From: a virus
Reading direction: 5' to 3' (one strand)
Length of the DNA: 24,099 nucleotides
IMG/VR virus record: IMGVR_UViG_3300031963_000058
Coordinates: 1-24,099 of that record
A program made the translations under genes and the position numbers. Below, in pieces: positions 2 through 8,473 of this stretch; the stretch's first letter is position 1; every line of letters starts with the position of its first letter. Under the pieces are notes generated by a model. That model worked only from the letters and a program-made list of their open reading frames with translations, was not told the origin of the DNA and ran no database searches.

Positions 2-148
2 TCATCAGGCTCTTCTGGCACATCTGGCTCATCTGGTTCGAGTGGTTCAAGCGGGTCATCAGGCTCTTCTGGTACATCTGGCTCATCTGGTTCGAGTGGT
101 TCAAGCGGGTCATCAGGCTCTTCTGGCTCATCTGGTTCGAGCGGTTCG
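2..148 (+). repeat. 54-bp tandem repeat in the GXY stalk
   Basis: Copies start at 2, 56 and 110. The first two are 54 bp (18 residues, six GXY triplets) and differ at one base. The third lacks one 9-bp triplet and then degenerates. The unit keeps the reading frame. Confidence 0.85.
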
Positions 149-982
149 TCAGGCTCTTCTGGTACTTCTGGCACATCCGGTAGGTCAGGATCTTCTGGTA
201 CATCAGGATCTTCTGGCTCTTCAGGTTCAAGTGGTTCATCAGGGTCTTCTGGCTCAAGCGGATCATCAGGTTCGAGTGGTACATCAGGCACATCCGGTAG
301 GTCAGGATCTTCTGGTACATCAGGATCTTCTGGCTCTTCAGGTTCAAGTGGTTCATCAGGGTCTTCTGGCTCAAGCGGATCATCAGGTTCGAGTGGAACA
401 TCAGGTACATCCGGTAGGTCGGGATCTTCTGGTACATCAGGATCTTCTGGCTCTTCAGGTTCAAGTGGTTCATCAGGGTCTTCTGGCTCAAGCGGATCAT
501 CAGGTTCGAGTGGAACATCTGGCACTTCGGGAACATCACCAGCACTTACAGGTATAACCTCAATATACCCAATTTCAACAGGAACAACAGGCTCTGCGGG
601 TTGGGGTATGATAACCAGATTTACTGCTGGTGAATCATTAGCGTTTGGTGATGTTGTATATATTGACGCAACACTTGGTCAATTTAAAAAAGCTGACGCA
701 GATACGGGCTCTACAGCTCCTGCAATAGCTTTATGTCTTGAAACAAGCTTAAGTAGTGGTGCAGCAGGAAACTTTTTGATGCACGGGTTTGTAACAAAAG
801 TGTCTTCAGGTGTTGGAGCATATGGTGGTCCTAATACTATTTGGTATTTAAGTACTACAGCAGGAAATATAACTACAACACCGCCATCAGCCAAAGATGA
901 CGTAGTACAGATAATTGGCGTAGCTTTAAGTGAATATACATTATATTTCCATCCACAATTAGTTTTCACTATATTATCATAA
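2..982 (+). CDS. Collagen-like (Gly-Ser-Ser)n phage fibre protein, 5' end missing
   Basis: The reading frame is open from base 2 to the TAA at 980-982, giving 326 residues with the N-terminus outside the window. Residues 1 to about 178 are almost entirely G-X-Y triplets of the type GSS and GTS, with one Arg per 39-residue repeat and no Pro. A C-terminal beta-rich domain of about 125 residues follows (from about base 608); it has the Ala/Gly/Thr-rich look of domains that end many phage fibres or decorate capsids. The likely role is a trimeric tail or head fibre whose stalk is the GXY repeat. A different frame over 42-557 is also open only because the repeat lacks stops; the GXY frame is the real one because it runs uninterrupted into the C-terminal domain. 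The convergent glycosyltransferase operon next door makes this Ser/Thr-rich stalk a plausible substrate (inference). Confidence 0.85.
   Translation, partial: SSGSSGTSGSSGSSGSSGSSGSSGTSGSSGSSGSSGSSGSSGSSGSSGSSGSSGTSGTSGRSGSSGTSGSSGSSGSSGSSGSSGSSGSSGSSGTSGTSGRSGSSGTSGSSGSSGSSGSSGSSGSSGSSGSSGTSGTSGRSGSSGTSGSSGSSGSSGSSGSSGSSGSSGSSGTSGTSGTSPALTGITSIYPISTGTTGSAGWGMITRFTAGESLAFGDVVYIDATLGQFKKADADTGSTAPAIALCLETSLSSGAAGNFLMHGFVTKVSSGVGAYGGPNTIWYLSTTAGNITTTPPSAKDDVVQIIGVALSEYTLYFHPQLVFTILS
170..520 (+). repeat. Three 117-bp tandem repeats in the GXY stalk
   Basis: Near-identical units begin at 170, 287 and 404. Each is 117 bp, encoding 39 residues or 13 GXY triplets, and each holds a single Arg codon (AGG) near its start. 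Copies differ at only a few third-codon positions, which points to recent duplication or active homogenisation. Length change by recombination would keep the frame and alter stalk length. Confidence 0.9.
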
Positions 983-1018
983 AAAAAATGTGGCAGTTAA
1001 TTCTGCCACATTTTTTTT
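981..1018. terminator. Bidirectional intrinsic terminator between convergent genes
   Basis: A perfect 16-bp inverted repeat (981-996 pairs with 1003-1018) encloses a 6-base loop TTAATT. It is A-rich on the left arm and T-rich on the right, so it makes a hairpin plus U-tract on either strand. Its arms overlap the TAA stop of the fibre gene (980-982) and touch the stop of the minus-strand gene (1018-1020). Confidence 0.92.
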
Positions 1019-1383
1019 TATTTGTAAGATTTTTCTTCAACAAATAATGAGTTATATTTTATATTTATTTCTTTTTTTATAACGGATCTTTTGTCGTTTG
1101 TAATATAAACTTTTCTAGCTAAATCGATAAACTCATCATCGAATGATTTATCGATTTCTTTTTTTCGTATATGATCTTCAATATCCCACAAGCTTTTATT
1201 AATAATTAAAAGATTATAATAATCGTCATCACTGATTTTAAGCTCATTGAATACAATATCATGTAAATAACTAAATTCATTATTTACGTTATACAATTTA
1301 TTAACATCGGATATATTTTCTTTTTTTATTTGTAAAATAGATAACTTATCTACAATTTCTCCAATTGATACCTCAATTTTCAT
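1018..1383 (-). CDS. Small DUF6165-like protein downstream of glycosyltransferases
   Basis: This 121-residue, charged, probably alpha-helical protein has no signal peptide or membrane segment. The start (MKIEVSIGEIVDKLSIL), a central LWxIEDxIRxxE stretch, a FIxLARxVYxxNDxR stretch and the ending EEKSYK match my memory of the small family annotated DUF6165, which is often found beside sugar-handling genes. No biochemical role is known to me. Its ATG (1381-1383) overlaps the end of the upstream glycosyltransferase gene by 11 bases, so the two are co-transcribed and probably translationally coupled. It is the last gene of the minus-strand operon and ends at the shared bidirectional terminator. 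The family assignment is from recollection and needs a profile search. Confidence 0.75.
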   Translation of the reverse strand: MKIEVSIGEIVDKLSILQIKKENISDVNKLYNVNNEFSYLHDIVFNELKISDDDYYNLLIINKSLWDIEDHIRKKEIDKSFDDEFIDLARKVYITNDKRSVIKKEINIKYNSLFVEEKSYK

Positions 1384-4300
1384 ACTTAAATATGTCTTTT
1401 TTTATTCTTTGAAACACCATATCTGGCGTTATAGATTTATGGCATTCAAATTGCCTAGGAGTATTTTTATGTTCTGGACACCAGTTCCAATCTGATTTGT
1501 CGAATTTAAATAATGGGTTATTCCAACAACTGTTACATACTGATTTATTAATAATTCTAGTACAATTTGATTTAAATTCTTGGTCCTCATCCGTGAAATT
1601 AGCGATCATAACAACATGTTTATCTAATGCCCAAGCAAGCCATGATAGACCGCTAGATAAACCGATTAAAAACTCACTATGATGAATCACATTCATAGTA
1701 TTTTCTATTGATGTATCGGATAAGTTTATAACCCCATTAATTTTAGACGCTTCTTTTGAGACAGAGATAACTTTATATCCGCAATTTTGAAGATACTCAC
1801 AAAGTATTTCCCAACCTCTAGGATAATTCCAATATTTTAGTTGGGCTGTAGAATCTGTTGCTATGGTAACGTATCTAGATTCAATAGGTCTTTTCCCCGG
1901 ATTAAATTTAATCCTTGGAGAAATTTCATGGTAATTTAATCCTAAAATGTTTGTTGCCACCTTTTGCAAGGGTATTATTTGAGGGTTTTCTGGGGCACTA
2001 TTATTATCATAATAATATCCTATGTTATACATCGCGTATAAGTCATAAACAATATCACCAGGAGTTACGAACTCAATTTCAGGGTAAACATCAACAAATA
2101 ATTTATTCCAAAATGTTGATACAATCAAATAACAATTGTGTTTTTTCTTAAATTCTAAGCAATATGGCATCCAAGCAATTGTATCGCCTAACGAGTTACT
2201 ATCGAATGCGATATAAACTCTTTCATTTTTTAATGATAATGTTTTTGAATATATAATTTTATCATCAATAGATACATTAGTTTTCCATTTTGTATAATAT
2301 TTTCGGTTAAGTCTTATCCAAGTATTTGTGGTGATATTTTCAGAATAAACAAGTGTGTTATTTTCATCAATAAATTCTACGTGATATGTGTTATTATCCT
2401 TTCCTTTTATTTCAAAATAAGGTTGACCAACAAATGATTGAGCTATATCTAATTTATATTTGGATTCTTTGTTTTTTAAATTTAGATATAAATTAACATG
2501 TTTTTCCGCAAAAGAATTCTGTTCATTAGTTGCTGTATATGAAAATAATTTTGAATTTACAATTTTTTCTAATTTATTTTTTGTGTCTAAAATATTATCA
2601 TCTATTGGTATAATATATTGTGAGTATGTGTCTAAATAAACATTTAGATCTCTTGCTAATATTTTCAATCCAAAAGATATAGCTTCTTTTAGAGTTATTG
2701 GGTTACACTCAAATGTTGAGTTAAATATTAAAACATCAGAAGCTGCCATAAATGCATGAACGTCATTTCTTTCACCCCATACAGTTATGTTCTTAGGTAA
2801 ATTTTCAACAATTGGGCCCCAATAGTCTTCAAAATTAGGTGCTAAGGAACCAATAGCATGAAAATGTAAATTGTTATTGTTTTCAAACAATTTTGCAATT
2901 TCTACGAATTCTTTTTGATTTTTACCTGGTGTCCAAATACCGACATTTAATACGTGTCTTACTTCAGGATCTAAATTTAAACTTAATTGCGCTTTTAATT
3001 TTTCAGCTTTTGTTTTTTTGAAATTTTCAATCGGATATTCAATTAACTCTAAAATTTCTTTTTCATCAGCAAAAGTTACATTTTTATGATATTTTGAGCA
3101 TAAAGCATATGCGTCAGGATGAAATTCTTTTGATTGTTTAGGATTAAATACAACATTATGGCATGTTTCGACAATATTCCAAGATCTGTCCTCAGAATAT
3201 AGTAGGTTAATTAAATCTCTTGGCACAGGATTAAATGAGTCAAAGCCTTCAATTGGTTCATCAATATGTACTACGTCTATATTATTATATTTAATAATAT
3301 CCAATAACTTGTATTTATTATCAATAGGTTCACCTAAATATCCTAAGGAATAAAACTTATCAGAATCGATCATAGTTTTTATCATATCTTTTTGCACTGA
3401 AAATGCATCGCCATAATTTGTATATTCAACAACAAAAATATTAAATTCGTCATTATAGTATTTTTTTATGGCCTCAATTCTTTTTAGTAGAAAAGCTGGC
3501 ATACCACCTGTTGATAAATGAGGGGCTAAATACAATATATTTGTTTTTTTTCCGCTATCTCGGTTTTTTATTTCATCAATTTTATTTATCATATCCATAA
3601 TAATATTTGGTCTTTTTTCACCATGTATAAAATACACAGAATTTTTCTGGGGAGGTAGTTTAAACCATTCTTGTATTTCGTTTTCAATACCTAAATAATT
3701 TTTGTTATCATTGATAATATCAATTCTATCTAACGATCCGTTAACATATATTAAAGGCAAACCCTTATCTATTTTATATTTCCATAATAAGCAGTTTAAT
3801 ACGGTTTCTTCGTTATAAGGGGCATAAATTGCATGGTTCCTAAATATTATATCCATTCCGCAAGTAATATACCATTCATTTAAAAATGGTATACTCTTCT
3901 GGCCTGATATATAATAACCAGATTGCCTATAACTTGTATTTAGCCTAAATGATTGATCAATATTCAATAATTCGCATAATTTGTGTTCAACGGTATTTTC
4001 TAAACCGTCTTCATGACCAATTTCGTTATATGCTAAAAAATCATAAATGCCTTTGGTAAAATAAGGAATATTTTCATTTTCTGGATATAAATCAAAAAAA
4101 ATGTCAATATTGTTGAATATAACTGAGTCGGCATCAATAAAGAATACTGTTTTAGCATAATTTTCTAAGGCATGTATTGTTATAAATGGTTTTTGGATTA
4201 ATATTGAATATATGTGAGGGTTTTCTCTTTTAATATAAAAATTAGATTCATCCAATCCTTTAATGTATAAATCATCATTATTTTTATGCCTTAAATGTAT

Positions 4301-4483
4301 ATTATACATTACTTCACAATATACGTCATTATTAGATGTTTCAAATTTTTTATTTATAGAATAAACTATTATCGGTAATTTAGAGAACTTCCTAATACTA
4401 GTTATAGTACATTCTATTACTGGAAAATAATTTTCGGTTGCATACAAAATATACGCTTTATCAAATTTAAGTTTATTATTCAT
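1373..4483 (-). CDS. Three-module glycosyltransferase with C-terminal TibC/Aah-like (BAHT) O-heptosyltransferase
   Basis: This is a 1036-residue cytoplasmic-type protein. Residues 1 to about 300 look like a GT-A fold sugar transferase (GT8-like) with a DxD motif, D117-A-D119, after a hydrophobic strand. Residues about 313-650 look like a GT4-type GT-B enzyme, with a GG loop near 326-327, NVGIWTPGKNQ around 513-523, and an E-x7-E motif at E592/E600. Residues about 675-755 form a beta-rich linker. Residues about 756-1030 closely resemble the autotransporter strand-loop-strand O-heptosyltransferases: SLGDTIAWMPY (764-774), DSTAQLKYW (877-885), GLSSGLSWLAWAL (941-953), and four C-terminal cysteines C983, C986, C1002, C1014. 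In TibC such cysteines bind iron. It starts in a 4-base ATGA overlap with the upstream GT9 gene. The probable role is building a glycan on protein Ser/Thr; donor and acceptor are unknown, and the adjacent Ser/Thr-rich fibres are the obvious candidates. Confidence 0.85.
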   Translation of the reverse strand: MNNKLKFDKAYILYATENYFPVIECTITSIRKFSKLPIIVYSINKKFETSNNDVYCEVMYNIHLRHKNNDDLYIKGLDESNFYIKRENPHIYSILIQKPFITIHALENYAKTVFFIDADSVIFNNIDIFFDLYPENENIPYFTKGIYDFLAYNEIGHEDGLENTVEHKLCELLNIDQSFRLNTSYRQSGYYISGQKSIPFLNEWYITCGMDIIFRNHAIYAPYNEETVLNCLLWKYKIDKGLPLIYVNGSLDRIDIINDNKNYLGIENEIQEWFKLPPQKNSVYFIHGEKRPNIIMDMINKIDEIKNRDSGKKTNILYLAPHLSTGGMPAFLLKRIEAIKKYYNDEFNIFVVEYTNYGDAFSVQKDMIKTMIDSDKFYSLGYLGEPIDNKYKLLDIIKYNNIDVVHIDEPIEGFDSFNPVPRDLINLLYSEDRSWNIVETCHNVVFNPKQSKEFHPDAYALCSKYHKNVTFADEKEILELIEYPIENFKKTKAEKLKAQLSLNLDPEVRHVLNVGIWTPGKNQKEFVEIAKLFENNNNLHFHAIGSLAPNFEDYWGPIVENLPKNITVWGERNDVHAFMAASDVLIFNSTFECNPITLKEAISFGLKILARDLNVYLDTYSQYIIPIDDNILDTKNKLEKIVNSKLFSYTATNEQNSFAEKHVNLYLNLKNKESKYKLDIAQSFVGQPYFEIKGKDNNTYHVEFIDENNTLVYSENITTNTWIRLNRKYYTKWKTNVSIDDKIIYSKTLSLKNERVYIAFDSNSLGDTIAWMPYCLEFKKKHNCYLIVSTFWNKLFVDVYPEIEFVTPGDIVYDLYAMYNIGYYYDNNSAPENPQIIPLQKVATNILGLNYHEISPRIKFNPGKRPIESRYVTIATDSTAQLKYWNYPRGWEILCEYLQNCGYKVISVSKEASKINGVINLSDTSIENTMNVIHHSEFLIGLSSGLSWLAWALDKHVVMIANFTDEDQEFKSNCTRIINKSVCNSCWNNPLFKFDKSDWNWCPEHKNTPRQFECHKSITPDMVFQRIKKDIFKYEN

Positions 4484-5421
4484 ATGATTTTCATAATTGT
4501 TTCGTAAACATCAATTACCGATGGGTGGCATTCAAATTCAGGTTTATTTTCTAAGCAGCCAATTAATGGGGGAACACCATGTATTGTACCCCATTCTCTA
4601 ACACCATATTTCATGTCTGAAGCACAAAATATTCCACAAGGACCTGAGATATAATGGTATTTGTAATCTTGTGACATATATCTATATGGGGCTCTAAATT
4701 CGTTATTTATGGAGCTTCCGAGTTGAATTATTTCGGCATCTGTTGTTCCTGCTAAATGCAGCAGTCCTGAATCCATTGTTACAAAACAAGAAGATTTATC
4801 AATTAAGTGCCAGGTTTGCGATATATTACTTTTGTTTGATAAATCTAAAACCAAGTCTTGTTTTATGCTAAATATTTTTTTTGTAATGTGAAAAAATCCA
4901 TATTCCTCGGTGTTTTTACCTGTAATAACAACATTTATATTATTTCCGCATAATAAATTAACAAGATCGGCCCATTTGTCTTTATCCCAGGTTCTTGAGG
5001 GCCAATTTTCTGCGGGATGGATTAAAACGAATTTTTCTGGTAGTCCATCAATTGGTATATATTCATCGGGTTCATATTCTGTATACAAATCATCTTCAGA
5101 TAATTGAAAGCCAAGCGTCATAGCATGATATTGTCTTATATCACATACATTACTTTTAAATTCAACACCAAACTCATTTTTCTTACCAACATTATTGAAT
5201 GATGAATGATATATCTGTGTTGATTTTACATTTTCTATATTAATTGCATTTACATAATAAGCTTTTTCAACATTTCTGTTATTATGGAATAACTCAGGAT
5301 AATTCGTTATGACATATATTTTGGAACCATATGATTCTTTTAATTTCCTAATAACAGGGGTTGCTGATAGCGTATCACCTAAGCCTTTTGCTTCGGATAA
5401 ATCTAGGAATACTTTTTTCAT
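4480..5421 (-). CDS. GT9 (heptosyltransferase)-like glycosyltransferase
   Basis: This 313-residue protein resembles the ADP-heptose:LPS heptosyltransferase family (GT9, GT-B fold). The N-terminal domain has KGLGDTLSATPVIRKL (12-27), matching the family's GDxLxxTPxxxxL start. The C-terminal domain has LIHPAENWPSRTWD (133-146) for donor binding and the signature MDSGLLHLAGT (216-226). It ends with four cysteines (C262, C266, C289, C298), the last in an EFECHP context that echoes QFECHK at the end of the neighbouring BAHT-like enzyme. It is the first gene of the minus-strand operon and overlaps the next by 4 bases (ATGA). The transferred sugar cannot be read from sequence: heptose is the family default, but GT9 members use others. 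A role in modifying fibres or host surface glycan is inferred from context. Confidence 0.85.
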   Translation of the reverse strand: MKKVFLDLSEAKGLGDTLSATPVIRKLKESYGSKIYVITNYPELFHNNRNVEKAYYVNAINIENVKSTQIYHSSFNNVGKKNEFGVEFKSNVCDIRQYHAMTLGFQLSEDDLYTEYEPDEYIPIDGLPEKFVLIHPAENWPSRTWDKDKWADLVNLLCGNNINVVITGKNTEEYGFFHITKKIFSIKQDLVLDLSNKSNISQTWHLIDKSSCFVTMDSGLLHLAGTTDAEIIQLGSSINNEFRAPYRYMSQDYKYHYISGPCGIFCASDMKYGVREWGTIHGVPPLIGCLENKPEFECHPSVIDVYETIMKII

Positions 5422-5537: not shown

Positions 5538-7328
5538 ATGGCTTGTCTATCTGGTGTAACTAATTCTAGCTCCTGGCAATATACAGATTGTTGCGGTTAT
5601 TTCCAAAGCGGATCTACTATTGGTACACCAATTTGTTTAAATGACGATTACTCATATTCTGGAATAACATTAACTGACATGAGTTGTAGTCCAGCCTGTG
5701 CTAGTTATCAATACAATTTTACGGATTGTTGTGATAGTGGCATAACATTTACAGTTAGTGGTATTCCGGCACAATTAGTTTCTAACTTTTATCACGTTAC
5801 TGTTTCAGGATATACTGGTTGCACCTATATAGATAATTTAGGTGGAGGAACAGTATATGATGGGACAACAGGTATATTTGTCCAGCAAGTTAGTTGTGAA
5901 GGCTGCATAACATGCCCTACACCTACACCAACACAAACGCCTACACCTACACCATCACCAACACCGACACCTACGTATATAGGGCCTGAATGTCCGATTA
6001 ACCAATATTGCTTAGATACTAATAATTATTTTGATAATGATGGGACCTATAATAAAGTTGGTAACTATAATGGATATGCGTATTATACTGGGGGTACAGA
6101 TCAAATAGGGTATTTATATAATACAGGGTATAAATGGTGTTTATCTGATAGTTTGGGTGGAGATTGTTTTTTATTTGGTAAAGTTCCTTGTTACGAAAAT
6201 TGCCCAGACATTTCATTATCTGAATTAACAGAAGGAGTTTGTGTTGTAACACCAACGCCAACACCTGCAATATGCGACGATTTTGATTTTAATGCGTATT
6301 TTAATTGTGAGATAATAACACCAACACCAACAGCAACAATAAGCCCTACACCGACATCTACTCCAACACCAACACCGACACCAACGCCGACATCTGATTG
6401 TTCGTTATCTAGTATTTCTTTAAGTGCTACAACATTACCTACACCAACACCTAGTGCGACACCTACGGCAACACCAATAACGGGTTATAGCGTTTGCTTT
6501 AGTGGTGATGTAACATATACTTTAGTTGATGATACATTTACAGATACTAAAACAAAAAAACTAGTTGATTGTATATCAGGAGACACATACTATGTTGTTG
6601 ACTCATTGGTATTTTCAGGATTATCAATTGAGACTGGAGTTACATTTAATTGTGTAATAAATGGCGTTTCAAAATGTGTAACATACGAGTCATTATCAAG
6701 TAATTCGTCAAATGCTATCCTCAATGACATAATATGGGTTTTAGGTCCAGGTTGTGATAACTGTTCAATAACTCCAACGCCAACACCTACACCGACAATA
6801 ACACCAACAAGCACGATATCACCAACACCTACATTATCTCCAACGGCAACAGGCCCAACTTCGACACCTGCTCCGGCACCAACAAGCACTCCTACGAATA
6901 CACCGACTTCAACACCAACACCAACACCGACAGACGTTATCCCAACATTATATTTAACAATGGACAATATATCTAGTTCATCGTTCCCAATATTTGTTGC
7001 GGAACTAAATACACCTATAACAGGTAACTTAACAGTTTCAACAGTTTTTGGTGATGGTTATGATGATATAGGTTGTACATCAGGTGTTGCTGGTGCTCAA
7101 TATAATAATCTGAGCAGTCTAGTAACATTTAACACTGGTAATTCTGGGATAGTATCTTTAACTCCAGACACTAAAACAGGTTATTGGAATTCAGGAGGAG
7201 GAGGCACTCCGATTAGATACACATTATATAATGTAAAAATAAATGGAACATCCATACCGTCTAGTGGGTCAACAATATTAATAGGATCTACTGTTGTGAC
7301 AATAGTTTGGGGAACATGTGTAAGTTAA
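5538..7328 (+). CDS. Modular Cys-rich fibre/adhesin-like protein with Thr-Pro linkers
   Basis: This 596-residue protein is built as beads on a string. Cys-rich, Thr/Ser/Gly/Tyr-rich beta-type domains (about 1-126, 147-237, 314-411 and 467-596) are separated by low-complexity (Thr-Pro)n linkers at about 127-146, 238-244, 261-286, 301-313 and 412-466. The linkers are spelled with varied ACA/ACG/ACT/ACC and CCA/CCT/CCG codons, so the repeat is kept at protein level. There is no signal peptide, which fits a virion part released by lysis rather than a secreted protein. Such Thr-Pro stalks are classic O-glycosylation targets and extended spacers. It heads a same-strand run of fibre-like genes and starts at ATG 5538 after the divergent intergenic region. 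Likely role: receptor-binding or decorating fibre. I recognise no catalytic domain. Confidence 0.75.
   Translation: MACLSGVTNSSSWQYTDCCGYFQSGSTIGTPICLNDDYSYSGITLTDMSCSPACASYQYNFTDCCDSGITFTVSGIPAQLVSNFYHVTVSGYTGCTYIDNLGGGTVYDGTTGIFVQQVSCEGCITCPTPTPTQTPTPTPSPTPTPTYIGPECPINQYCLDTNNYFDNDGTYNKVGNYNGYAYYTGGTDQIGYLYNTGYKWCLSDSLGGDCFLFGKVPCYENCPDISLSELTEGVCVVTPTPTPAICDDFDFNAYFNCEIITPTPTATISPTPTSTPTPTPTPTPTSDCSLSSISLSATTLPTPTPSATPTATPITGYSVCFSGDVTYTLVDDTFTDTKTKKLVDCISGDTYYVVDSLVFSGLSIETGVTFNCVINGVSKCVTYESLSSNSSNAILNDIIWVLGPGCDNCSITPTPTPTPTITPTSTISPTPTLSPTATGPTSTPAPAPTSTPTNTPTSTPTPTPTDVIPTLYLTMDNISSSSFPIFVAELNTPITGNLTVSTVFGDGYDDIGCTSGVAGAQYNNLSSLVTFNTGNSGIVSLTPDTKTGYWNSGGGGTPIRYTLYNVKINGTSIPSSGSTILIGSTVVTIVWGTCVS
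6771..6935 (+). repeat. Longest (Thr-Pro)n linker-coding stretch
   Basis: About 55 residues made almost only of Thr and Pro with some Ser, Ala, Ile and Asn (residues 412-466 of the fibre protein). The antisense reading gives a spurious open Val-Gly-rich frame. Codons vary, so it is a protein-level repeat rather than a perfect DNA repeat. Confidence 0.8.
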
Positions 7329-7334
7329 AATAAT

Positions 7335-7553
7335 ATGAAAGAGATAACTATTACAGACTTAATCGGAACACAACCATACACAGTATATATTTGTGACAAT
7401 ACATATAACATGTGTGCATACGTTACAACAATAAATGATGCTGACATACCATATTCTTTTTTAGTTCCAGAACCATACAATAATTTAAGTGAAGTTGGTA
7501 TCCGGGTATTAGATGGGAATAATTGTGTGATAAAATCTTTAATTGTAATATAA
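7335..7553 (+). CDS. Small single-domain fibre-like protein
   Basis: This 72-residue protein is a single beta-type domain with alternating hydrophobic residues and three cysteines (in VYICDN, MCAYV and NNCVI). The style (PYTVYICD, then a VPEPY turn, then a VLDGNNC ending) resembles domains repeated inside larger Bacteroidota phage fibre proteins, here as a stand-alone gene. It starts 6 bases after the preceding TAA in the same frame, with the A/T-rich start context AATAATATG. It could be a free-standing chaperone, tip or decoration module, or a remnant of a longer modular fibre split by a stop codon. The neighbours on both sides are fibre-like. No specific function can be assigned. Confidence 0.65.
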   Translation: MKEITITDLIGTQPYTVYICDNTYNMCAYVTTINDADIPYSFLVPEPYNNLSEVGIRVLDGNNCVIKSLIVI

Positions 7554-7558
7554 ATTAT

Positions 7559-8473
7559 ATGAATTTAAGTAGCTATGTTACAGGATGCTGTGATAATCAA
7601 ATATATAAAATAAAATCAGGAACAAAATACACTGTTGGTAATTTATTAATCAGCAAGCCAATTAATTTTTGTTACAAAGTTATTGAAGAGCCAGATATTA
7701 AGGTATATTTTACCATTCTAAATGATGATATACCTTTGGTTGATGCTGGATCTGGTATGACATGTTCATATTCAGGATGCTTGCCATGTCCAGGGCCAGA
7801 GCCAACGCCATTACCTCCACCTCCGATACCAGGGGTTTCATATAACGAATGTGAACCAATAACATTATTTCCATTAGGTGCTCAGTGTATTGCAATAAAT
7901 CCTGACGTTAATAGTCCTAATAGTGGAATATTATCTTTAGCAATAACTGGGGGTACAGCACCATATTATGTTGTATGGTCATTACCTAATAATACCACAG
8001 CTACTGGTACAACAATATATAACTTGAGTGCAGGTACATATAATGCCACAATTACTGATAAATATTATGACTTTATAACAACCGTTAGCTGCGAATTAAT
8101 AGAACCATTAGATTGTATTTTTTCTGGCTCTGTTAGTGAACTTAACTATTTGTTATTAGGTAGCGGAACAACTATCTTGTCATCATGTTCTGGTGAAACA
8201 AAAGAATACTGGTCAACAGTTTCACAAATATTTGAAATGCAAAGTGGGGATATCATTTATTATGATTATGAATTAACAATGCCTGTAGTTGAAGGGTATT
8301 ATTCAAACGGTATTTATTGGATACAAACAAATTCTTTGGGGTCTGTTTTAAATATTGGCACTTGTTCAATACCAACAATATCTCCTAGCCCGACACCAAC
8401 ATCAACACCAACACCTACAGTTAGTCCTACTCCGACATCAACACCAACACCTACGCCAACTCCGACACCATAA
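7559..8473 (+). CDS. Fibre-like protein with an SprB-like domain and a terminal Thr-Pro tail
   Basis: I chose the ATG at 7559 (5 bases after the upstream stop, AATTATATG context) over an upstream non-ATG start at 7523 that would overlap the previous gene. The product is 304 residues. Residues 1 to about 75 form a Cys-containing beta domain, a Pro-rich hinge (PTPLPPPPIPG) follows near 84-93, and about 97-180 resembles the SprB-type repeat (…SGILSLAITGGTAPYYVVWS…LSAGTYNATITD…), an Ig-like module known from the flavobacterial gliding adhesin SprB. About 90 more residues of beta-type sequence come next. The last ~32 residues are (Thr-Pro/Ser-Pro) repeat running straight into the stop, which is odd because such linkers elsewhere connect two domains. 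The next gene starts one base after its TAA. Confidence 0.72.
   Translation: MNLSSYVTGCCDNQIYKIKSGTKYTVGNLLISKPINFCYKVIEEPDIKVYFTILNDDIPLVDAGSGMTCSYSGCLPCPGPEPTPLPPPPIPGVSYNECEPITLFPLGAQCIAINPDVNSPNSGILSLAITGGTAPYYVVWSLPNNTTATGTTIYNLSAGTYNATITDKYYDFITTVSCELIEPLDCIFSGSVSELNYLLLGSGTTILSSCSGETKEYWSTVSQIFEMQSGDIIYYDYELTMPVVEGYYSNGIYWIQTNSLGSVLNIGTCSIPTISPSPTPTSTPTPTVSPTPTSTPTPTPTPTP

What the first reader, a model, noticed from the sequence alone, without database searches (positions are those of the whole stretch)
1373..4483. Three glycosyltransferase modules in one phage protein, ending in a BAHT-type protein O-heptosyltransferase
One 1036-residue phage protein joins a DxD GT-A module, a GT4-like module with an E-x7-E motif and a module closely resembling TibC/Aah autotransporter heptosyltransferases, including the four C-terminal cysteines. 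TibC/Aah enzymes glycosylate Ser on repetitive surface proteins. Here the operon sits between a (Gly-Ser-Ser)n fibre and (Thr-Pro)n fibres. A self-contained phage system that builds O-glycans on its own fibres would be new to me, and could protect fibres, change receptor binding or hide the virion.
Basis: partly seen in the sequence, partly recalled or inferred. Interest (0 to 1): 0.82.

Follow-up and report, generated by a model that had tools for sequence, protein, structure and literature searches.

The report
Phage enzyme likely glycosylating its fibres
A large aquatic phage carries one protein that joins three sugar-attaching enzymes, the last one an unmistakable relative of the bacterial enzyme TibC that puts heptose on surface proteins, and relatives of this gene in dozens of other phages sit near very long Gly-Ser/Thr repeat fibres, so these phages probably build sugar chains on their own fibres.

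Summary
In detail: the ORF at 1373-4483 is real (minus strand, 1036 aa). It joins a GT-A-fold module with an invariant DxD, a GT4 module with E-x7-E, and a C-terminal module scoring 307 bits against TIGR04414 (Aah/TibC; cut-off 200). The catalytic Asp, Thr226, Lys230, Trp305 and all four iron-finger cysteines are kept. It is not a canonical BAHT: across 44 distinct phage homologues the beta-hairpin thumb needed for the TibC dodecamer is deleted (43) or reduced (1), and Arg286 is lost (Thr in 40). They branch apart from the stand-alone bacterial enzymes.

28 of 44 phage loci carry Gly-X-Y runs within 10 kb, against 0 of 100 random viral loci and 1 of 78 bacterial-homologue loci. X and Y are 84-89% Ser/Thr, almost no proline. 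Four relatives carry heptose-kinase, adenylyltransferase and epimerase-like genes beside the enzyme; others carry APS kinase and a sulfotransferase.

Best reading: the phage O-glycosylates its own Ser/Thr-repeat fibres, the TibC-like module adding a first, heptose-like sugar. Chemistry class is well supported; acceptor and donor are inferred. Host LPS modification, the published reading of comparable phage genes, is the main rival.

The parts
1373..4483 (-). 1036-residue protein with three glycosyltransferase modules (P0001)
3554..4483 (-). GT-A-fold module (residues 1-310), DAD at residues 117-119
   Evidence: AF2 pLDDT 88, Foldseek GT-A hits, invariant Asp117 and Asp119
2504..3553 (-). GT4-like GT-B module (residues 311-660), E592-x7-E600
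   Evidence: PF00534 35.1 bits against 26.4; E-x7-E; Foldseek BshA/MshA/WaaG
1376..2461 (-). TibC-like O-heptosyltransferase module (residues 675-1036)
   Evidence: TIGR04414 307 bits; 4RAP E 1.3e-54
2240..2449 (-). predicted beta-rich N-terminal part of the TibC-like module (residues 679-748), where TibC has its beta-barrel
   Evidence: strands in the AF2 model; Foldseek alignment of about 370 columns with TibC
2183..2185 (-). Asp767, equivalent of TibC catalytic base Asp110
1442..1537 (-). iron-finger region, Cys983, Cys986, Cys1002, Cys1014
4480..5421 (-). GT9-family glycosyltransferase, first gene of the operon, itself ending in four conserved Cys
   Evidence: PF01075 55 bits against 22; relatives about 60% identical; Cys pattern
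1018..1383 (-). DUF6165 protein, last gene of the operon; fused to the TibC-like protein in L033 and L038
   Evidence: PF19662 32.8 bits against 27; fusions
981..1018 (.). hairpin with A and T runs between the convergent operon and fibre gene, possible two-way terminator
   Evidence: 16-pair stem
2..982 (+). collagen-like (Gly-Ser-Ser/Thr)n fibre protein, cut by the contig start; proposed acceptor
   Evidence: PF01391 E 9e-26, PHROG tail-fibre families, 125 Ser/Thr in the first 202 residues
5538..7328 (+). Thr-Pro-array protein, possible second acceptor
   Evidence: 38 TP dipeptides
7523..8473 (+). ORF ending in a Thr-Pro array (start codon uncertain)

Best explanation
The protein is a multi-module glycan-assembly enzyme of a large, probably lytic phage. 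In the infected cell its C-terminal TibC-like module (Asp767 as base, iron-finger scaffold) transfers a heptose-type sugar from a nucleotide donor to Ser/Thr hydroxyls of the phage's own repeat fibres, above all the Gly-Ser/Thr-Ser/Thr collagen-like protein whose convergent gene ends 35 bases from the operon. The GT4 and GT-A modules and the co-transcribed GT9 protein extend the sugar; DUF6165 assists in an unknown way. Shown: three GT modules, TibC-like fold and catalytic residues, overlapping genes, clade-wide conservation, statistical association with fibres. Inferred: donor, acceptor, order of transfers, oligomeric state and benefit to the virion.
For: TIGR04414 above cut-off, TibC by sequence and structure, catalytic and iron-finger residues kept in 44 phage homologues. 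Gly-X-Y runs near 28 of 44 such genes, 0 of 100 random loci, 1 of 78 genome-record homologue loci, with 84-89% Ser/Thr at X and Y. In reverse, TIGR04414 in 13 of 36 records with (G[ST][ST])x8, 2 of 27 with (GPX)x8, 0 of 22 random. Neighbouring repeat proteins include some with Peptidase_S74. Heptose-pathway-like genes beside the enzyme in four relatives. Module fusion and fission.
Against: No direct test of glycosylation. Arg286, which contacts the ADP adenine in TibC, and the thumb are lost, so donor and assembly may differ. No heptose kinase in this record or three near-identical ones. 23 of 36 GSS-pattern records and 16 of 44 TibC-like loci lack the partner, though most records are fragments; two huge-phage relatives have no Gly-X-Y run within 10 kb. 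GTs and fibres may share a variable host-recognition region for other reasons. The heptose-model hits stay below equivalog cut-offs.
Confidence: 0.6

Rival explanations
1. The operon modifies host LPS or another surface polysaccharide, blocking superinfection or changing receptors; the fibre genes are neighbours only because both sit in the host-recognition region.
For: GT9 and GT4 are LPS-type families. GTs and rfaE in the host-recognition clusters of pelagimyophages are read this way in PMC7029224. In four relatives heptose-pathway-like genes stand next to the enzyme.
Against: The module is closest to enzymes that act on protein Ser, not to LPS heptosyltransferases (307 bits for TIGR04414 against 20 for WaaC). 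Enrichment is with Ser/Thr-type rather than Pro-type collagen fibres, and GT4 genes show no clear enrichment. Integrases in only 1 of 32 records argue against lysogenic conversion, though not against change during lytic infection.
Confidence: 0.22
2. The TibC-like module glycosylates a host surface protein, such as an adhesin or S-layer protein, rather than a phage fibre.
For: TibC and AAH act on bacterial autotransporters (PMC4358343).
Against: No autotransporter-like gene was found near it, and phage loci, unlike bacterial ones, carry Ser/Thr-rich Gly-X-Y proteins.
Confidence: 0.08
3. The GT modules glycosylate hypermodified phage DNA bases, as T4 alpha/beta glucosyltransferases do.
For: Phage GTs often modify DNA (noted in PMC12619734); the phage has T4-like replication genes.
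Against: No thymidylate-synthase/hydroxymethylase-family gene in this record or its 148 kb relative, and only in 3 of 26 records; the TibC module and fibre association stay unexplained.
Confidence: 0.03

Closest known systems
TibC/Aah bacterial autotransporter heptosyltransferases (BAHT, TIGR04414; PMC4358343)
   Same: Fold, catalytic Asp, Thr226, Lys230, Trp305, four-Cys iron finger; Ser at TibC position 300, as in AAH
   Different: Thumb deleted, Arg286 replaced by Thr, C-terminal part of a multi-GT protein, phage-encoded, no autotransporter partner seen
Mycobacteriophage virion glycosylation (Freeman et al. 2023, as cited in PMC12619734; original not read)
   Same: Glycans on virion proteins
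   Different: Reported there at C-termini of capsid and tail-tube subunits; no TibC-type enzyme or collagen-like repeat mentioned in the passage read
Mimivirus L230 collagen lysyl hydroxylase/glycosyltransferase (PMC9614988)
   Same: Virus-encoded enzyme shown to modify a viral collagen-like protein
   Different: Glucose on hydroxylysine, eukaryotic virus, unrelated GT
Pelagimyophage host-recognition clusters with GTs and rfaE (PMC7029224)
   Same: Aquatic phages; GTs and a heptose gene near tail fibres
   Different: Interpreted there as LPS O-chain modification; TibC-like enzymes not mentioned in the passages read

Membership tests
BAHT / TIGR04414 | score above the curated cut-off | tested here: met
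   307.2 against 200 bits
BAHT / TIGR04414 | catalytic base Asp110 | tested here: met
   Asp767; 44 of 44 homologues
BAHT / TIGR04414 | donor-site Thr226, Lys230, Trp305 | tested here: met
   all kept here; 44, 44 and 43 of 44 homologues
BAHT / TIGR04414 | donor-site Arg286 (adenine contact) | tested here: not met
   Thr929 by alignment; Thr in 40 of 44 phage homologues, Arg in 60 of 65 genome-record homologues
BAHT / TIGR04414 | four-cysteine iron finger | tested here: met
   Cys983, 986, 1002, 1014; iron binding itself not testable here
BAHT / TIGR04414 | beta-hairpin thumb (Phe265/Val266) | tested here: not met
   deleted in 43 and reduced in 1 of 44 phage homologues
BAHT / TIGR04414 | N-terminal beta-barrel | tested here: inconclusive
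   strands at residues 679-748 in the model and Foldseek TM 0.80 to TibC; Pfam TibC_1st did not match this protein
BAHT / TIGR04414 | partner autotransporter | tested here: not met
   no such family among scanned neighbours; fibre-type proteins instead
BAHT / TIGR04414 | ADP-heptose transfer and dodecamer | not testable with these tools
   needs biochemistry
GT4 (middle module) | Glycos_transf_1 profile and E-x7-E | tested here: met
   35.1 against 26.4 bits; E592-x7-E600
GT-A fold (N-terminal module) | GT-A fold with DxD | tested here: met
   Foldseek E about 1e-8, TM about 0.5; DAD 117-119; CAZy family not assigned
GT9 (ORF 4480-5421) | Glyco_transf_9 profile | tested here: met
   55 against 22 bits

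The most novel reading that the evidence does not exclude
A widespread phage pathway in which nearly proline-free Gly-Ser/Thr-Ser/Thr fibres are densely O-glycosylated by a thumbless TibC-like enzyme, in some phages with a phage-made nucleotide-heptose and with methyl and sulfate decoration, the glycan replacing proline/hydroxyproline in stabilising a triple helix or forming the outer coat of the fibre.
Probability: 0.3. Interest if true: 0.87.

Novelty: new variant of a known kind. Interest (0 to 1): 0.74.

Why it matters
If right, many glycosyltransferase and heptose genes in aquatic phages that are now read as tools for changing host LPS would instead be virion-decoration machinery, and phages would join giant viruses in glycosylating their own collagen-like proteins. 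It makes a concrete prediction, glycans on fibre Ser/Thr, that can be tested on a cultured phage. It also supplies a thumbless TibC variant for asking why the bacterial enzymes need a dodecamer.

Tried and rejected
GmhA (sugar-7-phosphate isomerase) search in 44 records: none. Reading the Mel-JY01 'cytidylyltransferase' (L086:11243-13162) as HldE: only a weak generic CTP_transf_like hit and no TIGR02198/TIGR02199 match in that record, so not claimed. PHROGs gave nothing for the GT proteins. Two huge-phage relatives (L513, L514) have no Gly-X-Y run within 10 kb, so the fibre link is not universal. A general GT-with-fibre effect was checked with GT4 genes in TibC-negative records: 5 of 23 (GSS) against 3 of 25 (GPX), no clear enrichment. 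DNA-base glycosylation and lysogenic conversion were tested by searching for thymidylate-synthase and integrase families. No paper on DUF6165 in the held library.

Full report
WHAT IS THERE. The window is bases 1-24099 of an 88,099-base virus record. The ORF named in the finding lies at 1373-4483 on the minus strand and encodes 1036 residues. It overlaps an upstream GT9 gene (4480-5421, minus) by 4 bases and a downstream DUF6165 gene (1018-1383, minus) by 11 bases, so the three are probably one operon. A 16-pair hairpin with A and T runs (981-1018) separates it from the convergent plus-strand gene at 2-982, a collagen-like (Gly-Ser-Ser/Thr)n protein cut by the contig start (PF01391; PHROG tail-fibre families). 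On the other side, plus-strand genes carry Thr-Pro arrays (5538-8473). Replication and transcription genes such as SbcCD, primase, RuvC and a sigma factor mark a large phage with T4-like functions.

THE THREE MODULES. Residues 698-1029 match TIGR04414 (Aah/TibC O-heptosyltransferase) with 307 bits against a cut-off of 200, TibC 4RAP with E 1e-54, and TibC by structure (E 1e-29, TM 0.80; AF2 model of the whole protein, pLDDT 81.6). Residues 503-622 match Glycos_transf_1, with E592-x7-E600. Residues 1-310 match no family by sequence, but a separate AF2 model (pLDDT 88, pTM 0.89) has a GT-A fold, and both Asp of its DxD are invariant in 21 homologues.

FINE CHECK AGAINST TIBC. Using the residues defined experimentally in PMC4358343, Asp110, Thr226, Lys230, Trp305, Phe368 and the four iron-finger cysteines are all kept; Pro300 is Ser, as in AAH; Arg286 aligns with Thr; the thumb is missing. 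In 44 distinct phage homologues (clustered from the 80 best loci kept of 157 confirmed in IMG/VR, plus the window and Mel-JY01), Asp110, Thr226, Lys230 and the four Cys are invariant, Trp305 is kept in 43, the thumb is deleted in 43 and reduced in one, and Arg286 is Thr in 40. Homologues in bacterial and archaeal genome records keep Arg286 in 60 of 65, and most keep the thumb region. In a quick tree 43 of the 44 phage sequences form one clade (SH-aLRT 99) inside a group (100) that also holds Mel-JY01 and eight divergent multi-module proteins from MAG contigs, apart from the stand-alone bacterial enzymes and TibC. The phage enzyme is therefore TibC-like in chemistry and scaffold, but not a canonical BAHT.

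MODULE SHUFFLING. Homologous ORFs run from 355 to 1599 residues, some cut by contig ends, and add methyltransferase, FkbM, Gly_transf_sug, GT2 or GT25 domains. DUF6165 is a separate neighbour in 13 loci but is fused to the TibC-like protein in L033 and L038. In L019/L020 the modules lie in separate adjacent ORFs. Fusion and fission of the same parts argues that they work in one pathway (inference).

ASSOCIATION WITH FIBRES. Perfect Gly-X-Y runs of 12 or more triplets occur in 28 of 44 TibC-like loci, in 0 of 100 loci drawn by an arbitrary 14-mer (854 kb against 760 kb), and in 1 of 78 genome-record homologue loci. X is Ser/Thr in 89% and Y in 84% of 7056 triplets; proline is 0.1-0.2%. In the reverse direction, TIGR04414 is above cut-off in 13 of 36 records of at least 30 kb that hold (G[ST][ST])x8, 2 of 27 with (GPX)x8 and 0 of 22 random ones (Fisher p 0.015 and 0.0009). 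GT4 genes in TibC-negative records are not clearly enriched in the GSS group (5 of 23 against 3 of 25). I picked C-termini of ten neighbouring repeat proteins by eye, five of them because their ends looked like an endosialidase chaperone; those five matched Peptidase_S74, a domain known from phage tail fibres and spikes, and the other five did not. That fraction is not an estimate.

DONOR AND DECORATION GENES. Searches of 44 records with heptose-pathway models found kinase-like genes in 6, adenylyltransferase-like in 7 and strong epimerase-like hits in 5. In L049, L062, L064 and L065 these lie together beside the TibC-like gene, with a HAD phosphatase and a cupin. The heptose model is the best family hit for each representative scanned (162, 119 and 94 bits) but all stay below the equivalog cut-offs. 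Sulfotransferase and APS-kinase families recur in 13 and 12 loci. No GmhA was found. This record has no kinase, adenylyltransferase or epimerase match, and no kinase was found in L002-L004, so a host-made donor must be assumed here.

INTERPRETATION. I favour O-glycosylation of the phage's own fibres, begun by the TibC-like module (0.6). The steps shown are enzyme class, conserved active site, overlapping genes and fibre association. Donor, acceptor, order and benefit are inferred. The main rival is host LPS modification, the published reading for pelagimyophage GTs and rfaE (PMC7029224); the rarity of integrases (1 of 32) argues only against lysogenic conversion, not against LPS change during lytic infection. 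DNA glycosylation is unlikely. Viral collagen glycosylation has a precedent in mimivirus L230 (PMC9614988) and phage virion glycosylation in mycobacteriophages (cited in PMC12619734). In the open-access library searched I found no report of TibC-like enzymes in phages; most subscription papers are not in it.

Noticed in passing
window 4480-5421: The GT9 protein and six phage relatives also end in four conserved Cys with an FECHP motif resembling TibC's iron finger: a second, shorter iron-finger-like enzyme.
   Followed up: partly
L049:8276-11163, and L062, L064, L065: Phage gene cassette resembling nucleotide-heptose synthesis (epimerase, kinase, adenylyltransferase, HAD phosphatase, cupin) beside the TibC-like gene.
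   Followed up: partly
L065:11504-12322 and L049:10726-11163 (clusters C3, C4): Sulfotransferase and APS kinase families recur in 13 and 12 TibC-like phage loci, suggesting a sulfated product.
   Followed up: partly
L086:4750-8430 (Mel-JY01): Gene annotated 'methyltransferase FkbM' is a GT4 plus TibC-like protein, and a 1016-residue Gly-X-Y ORF at the record's start is not annotated as such.
   Followed up: partly
L087-L093, L095: TibC-like multi-module proteins on MAG contigs of mixed phyla, including an archaeal bin, group with the phage clade; they may be phage contigs binned by mistake.
   Followed up: no
record 43,325-52,700 (L082-L083): About ten consecutive ORFs of 225-313 aa, several with similar starts, looking like a tandem paralogous family of unknown function.
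   Followed up: no
window 1 and the ends of L002-L004: This contig begins inside the Gly-Ser-Ser repeat gene and the three near-identical contigs end shortly beyond the operon, so assemblies seem to break at the repeat.
   Followed up: no
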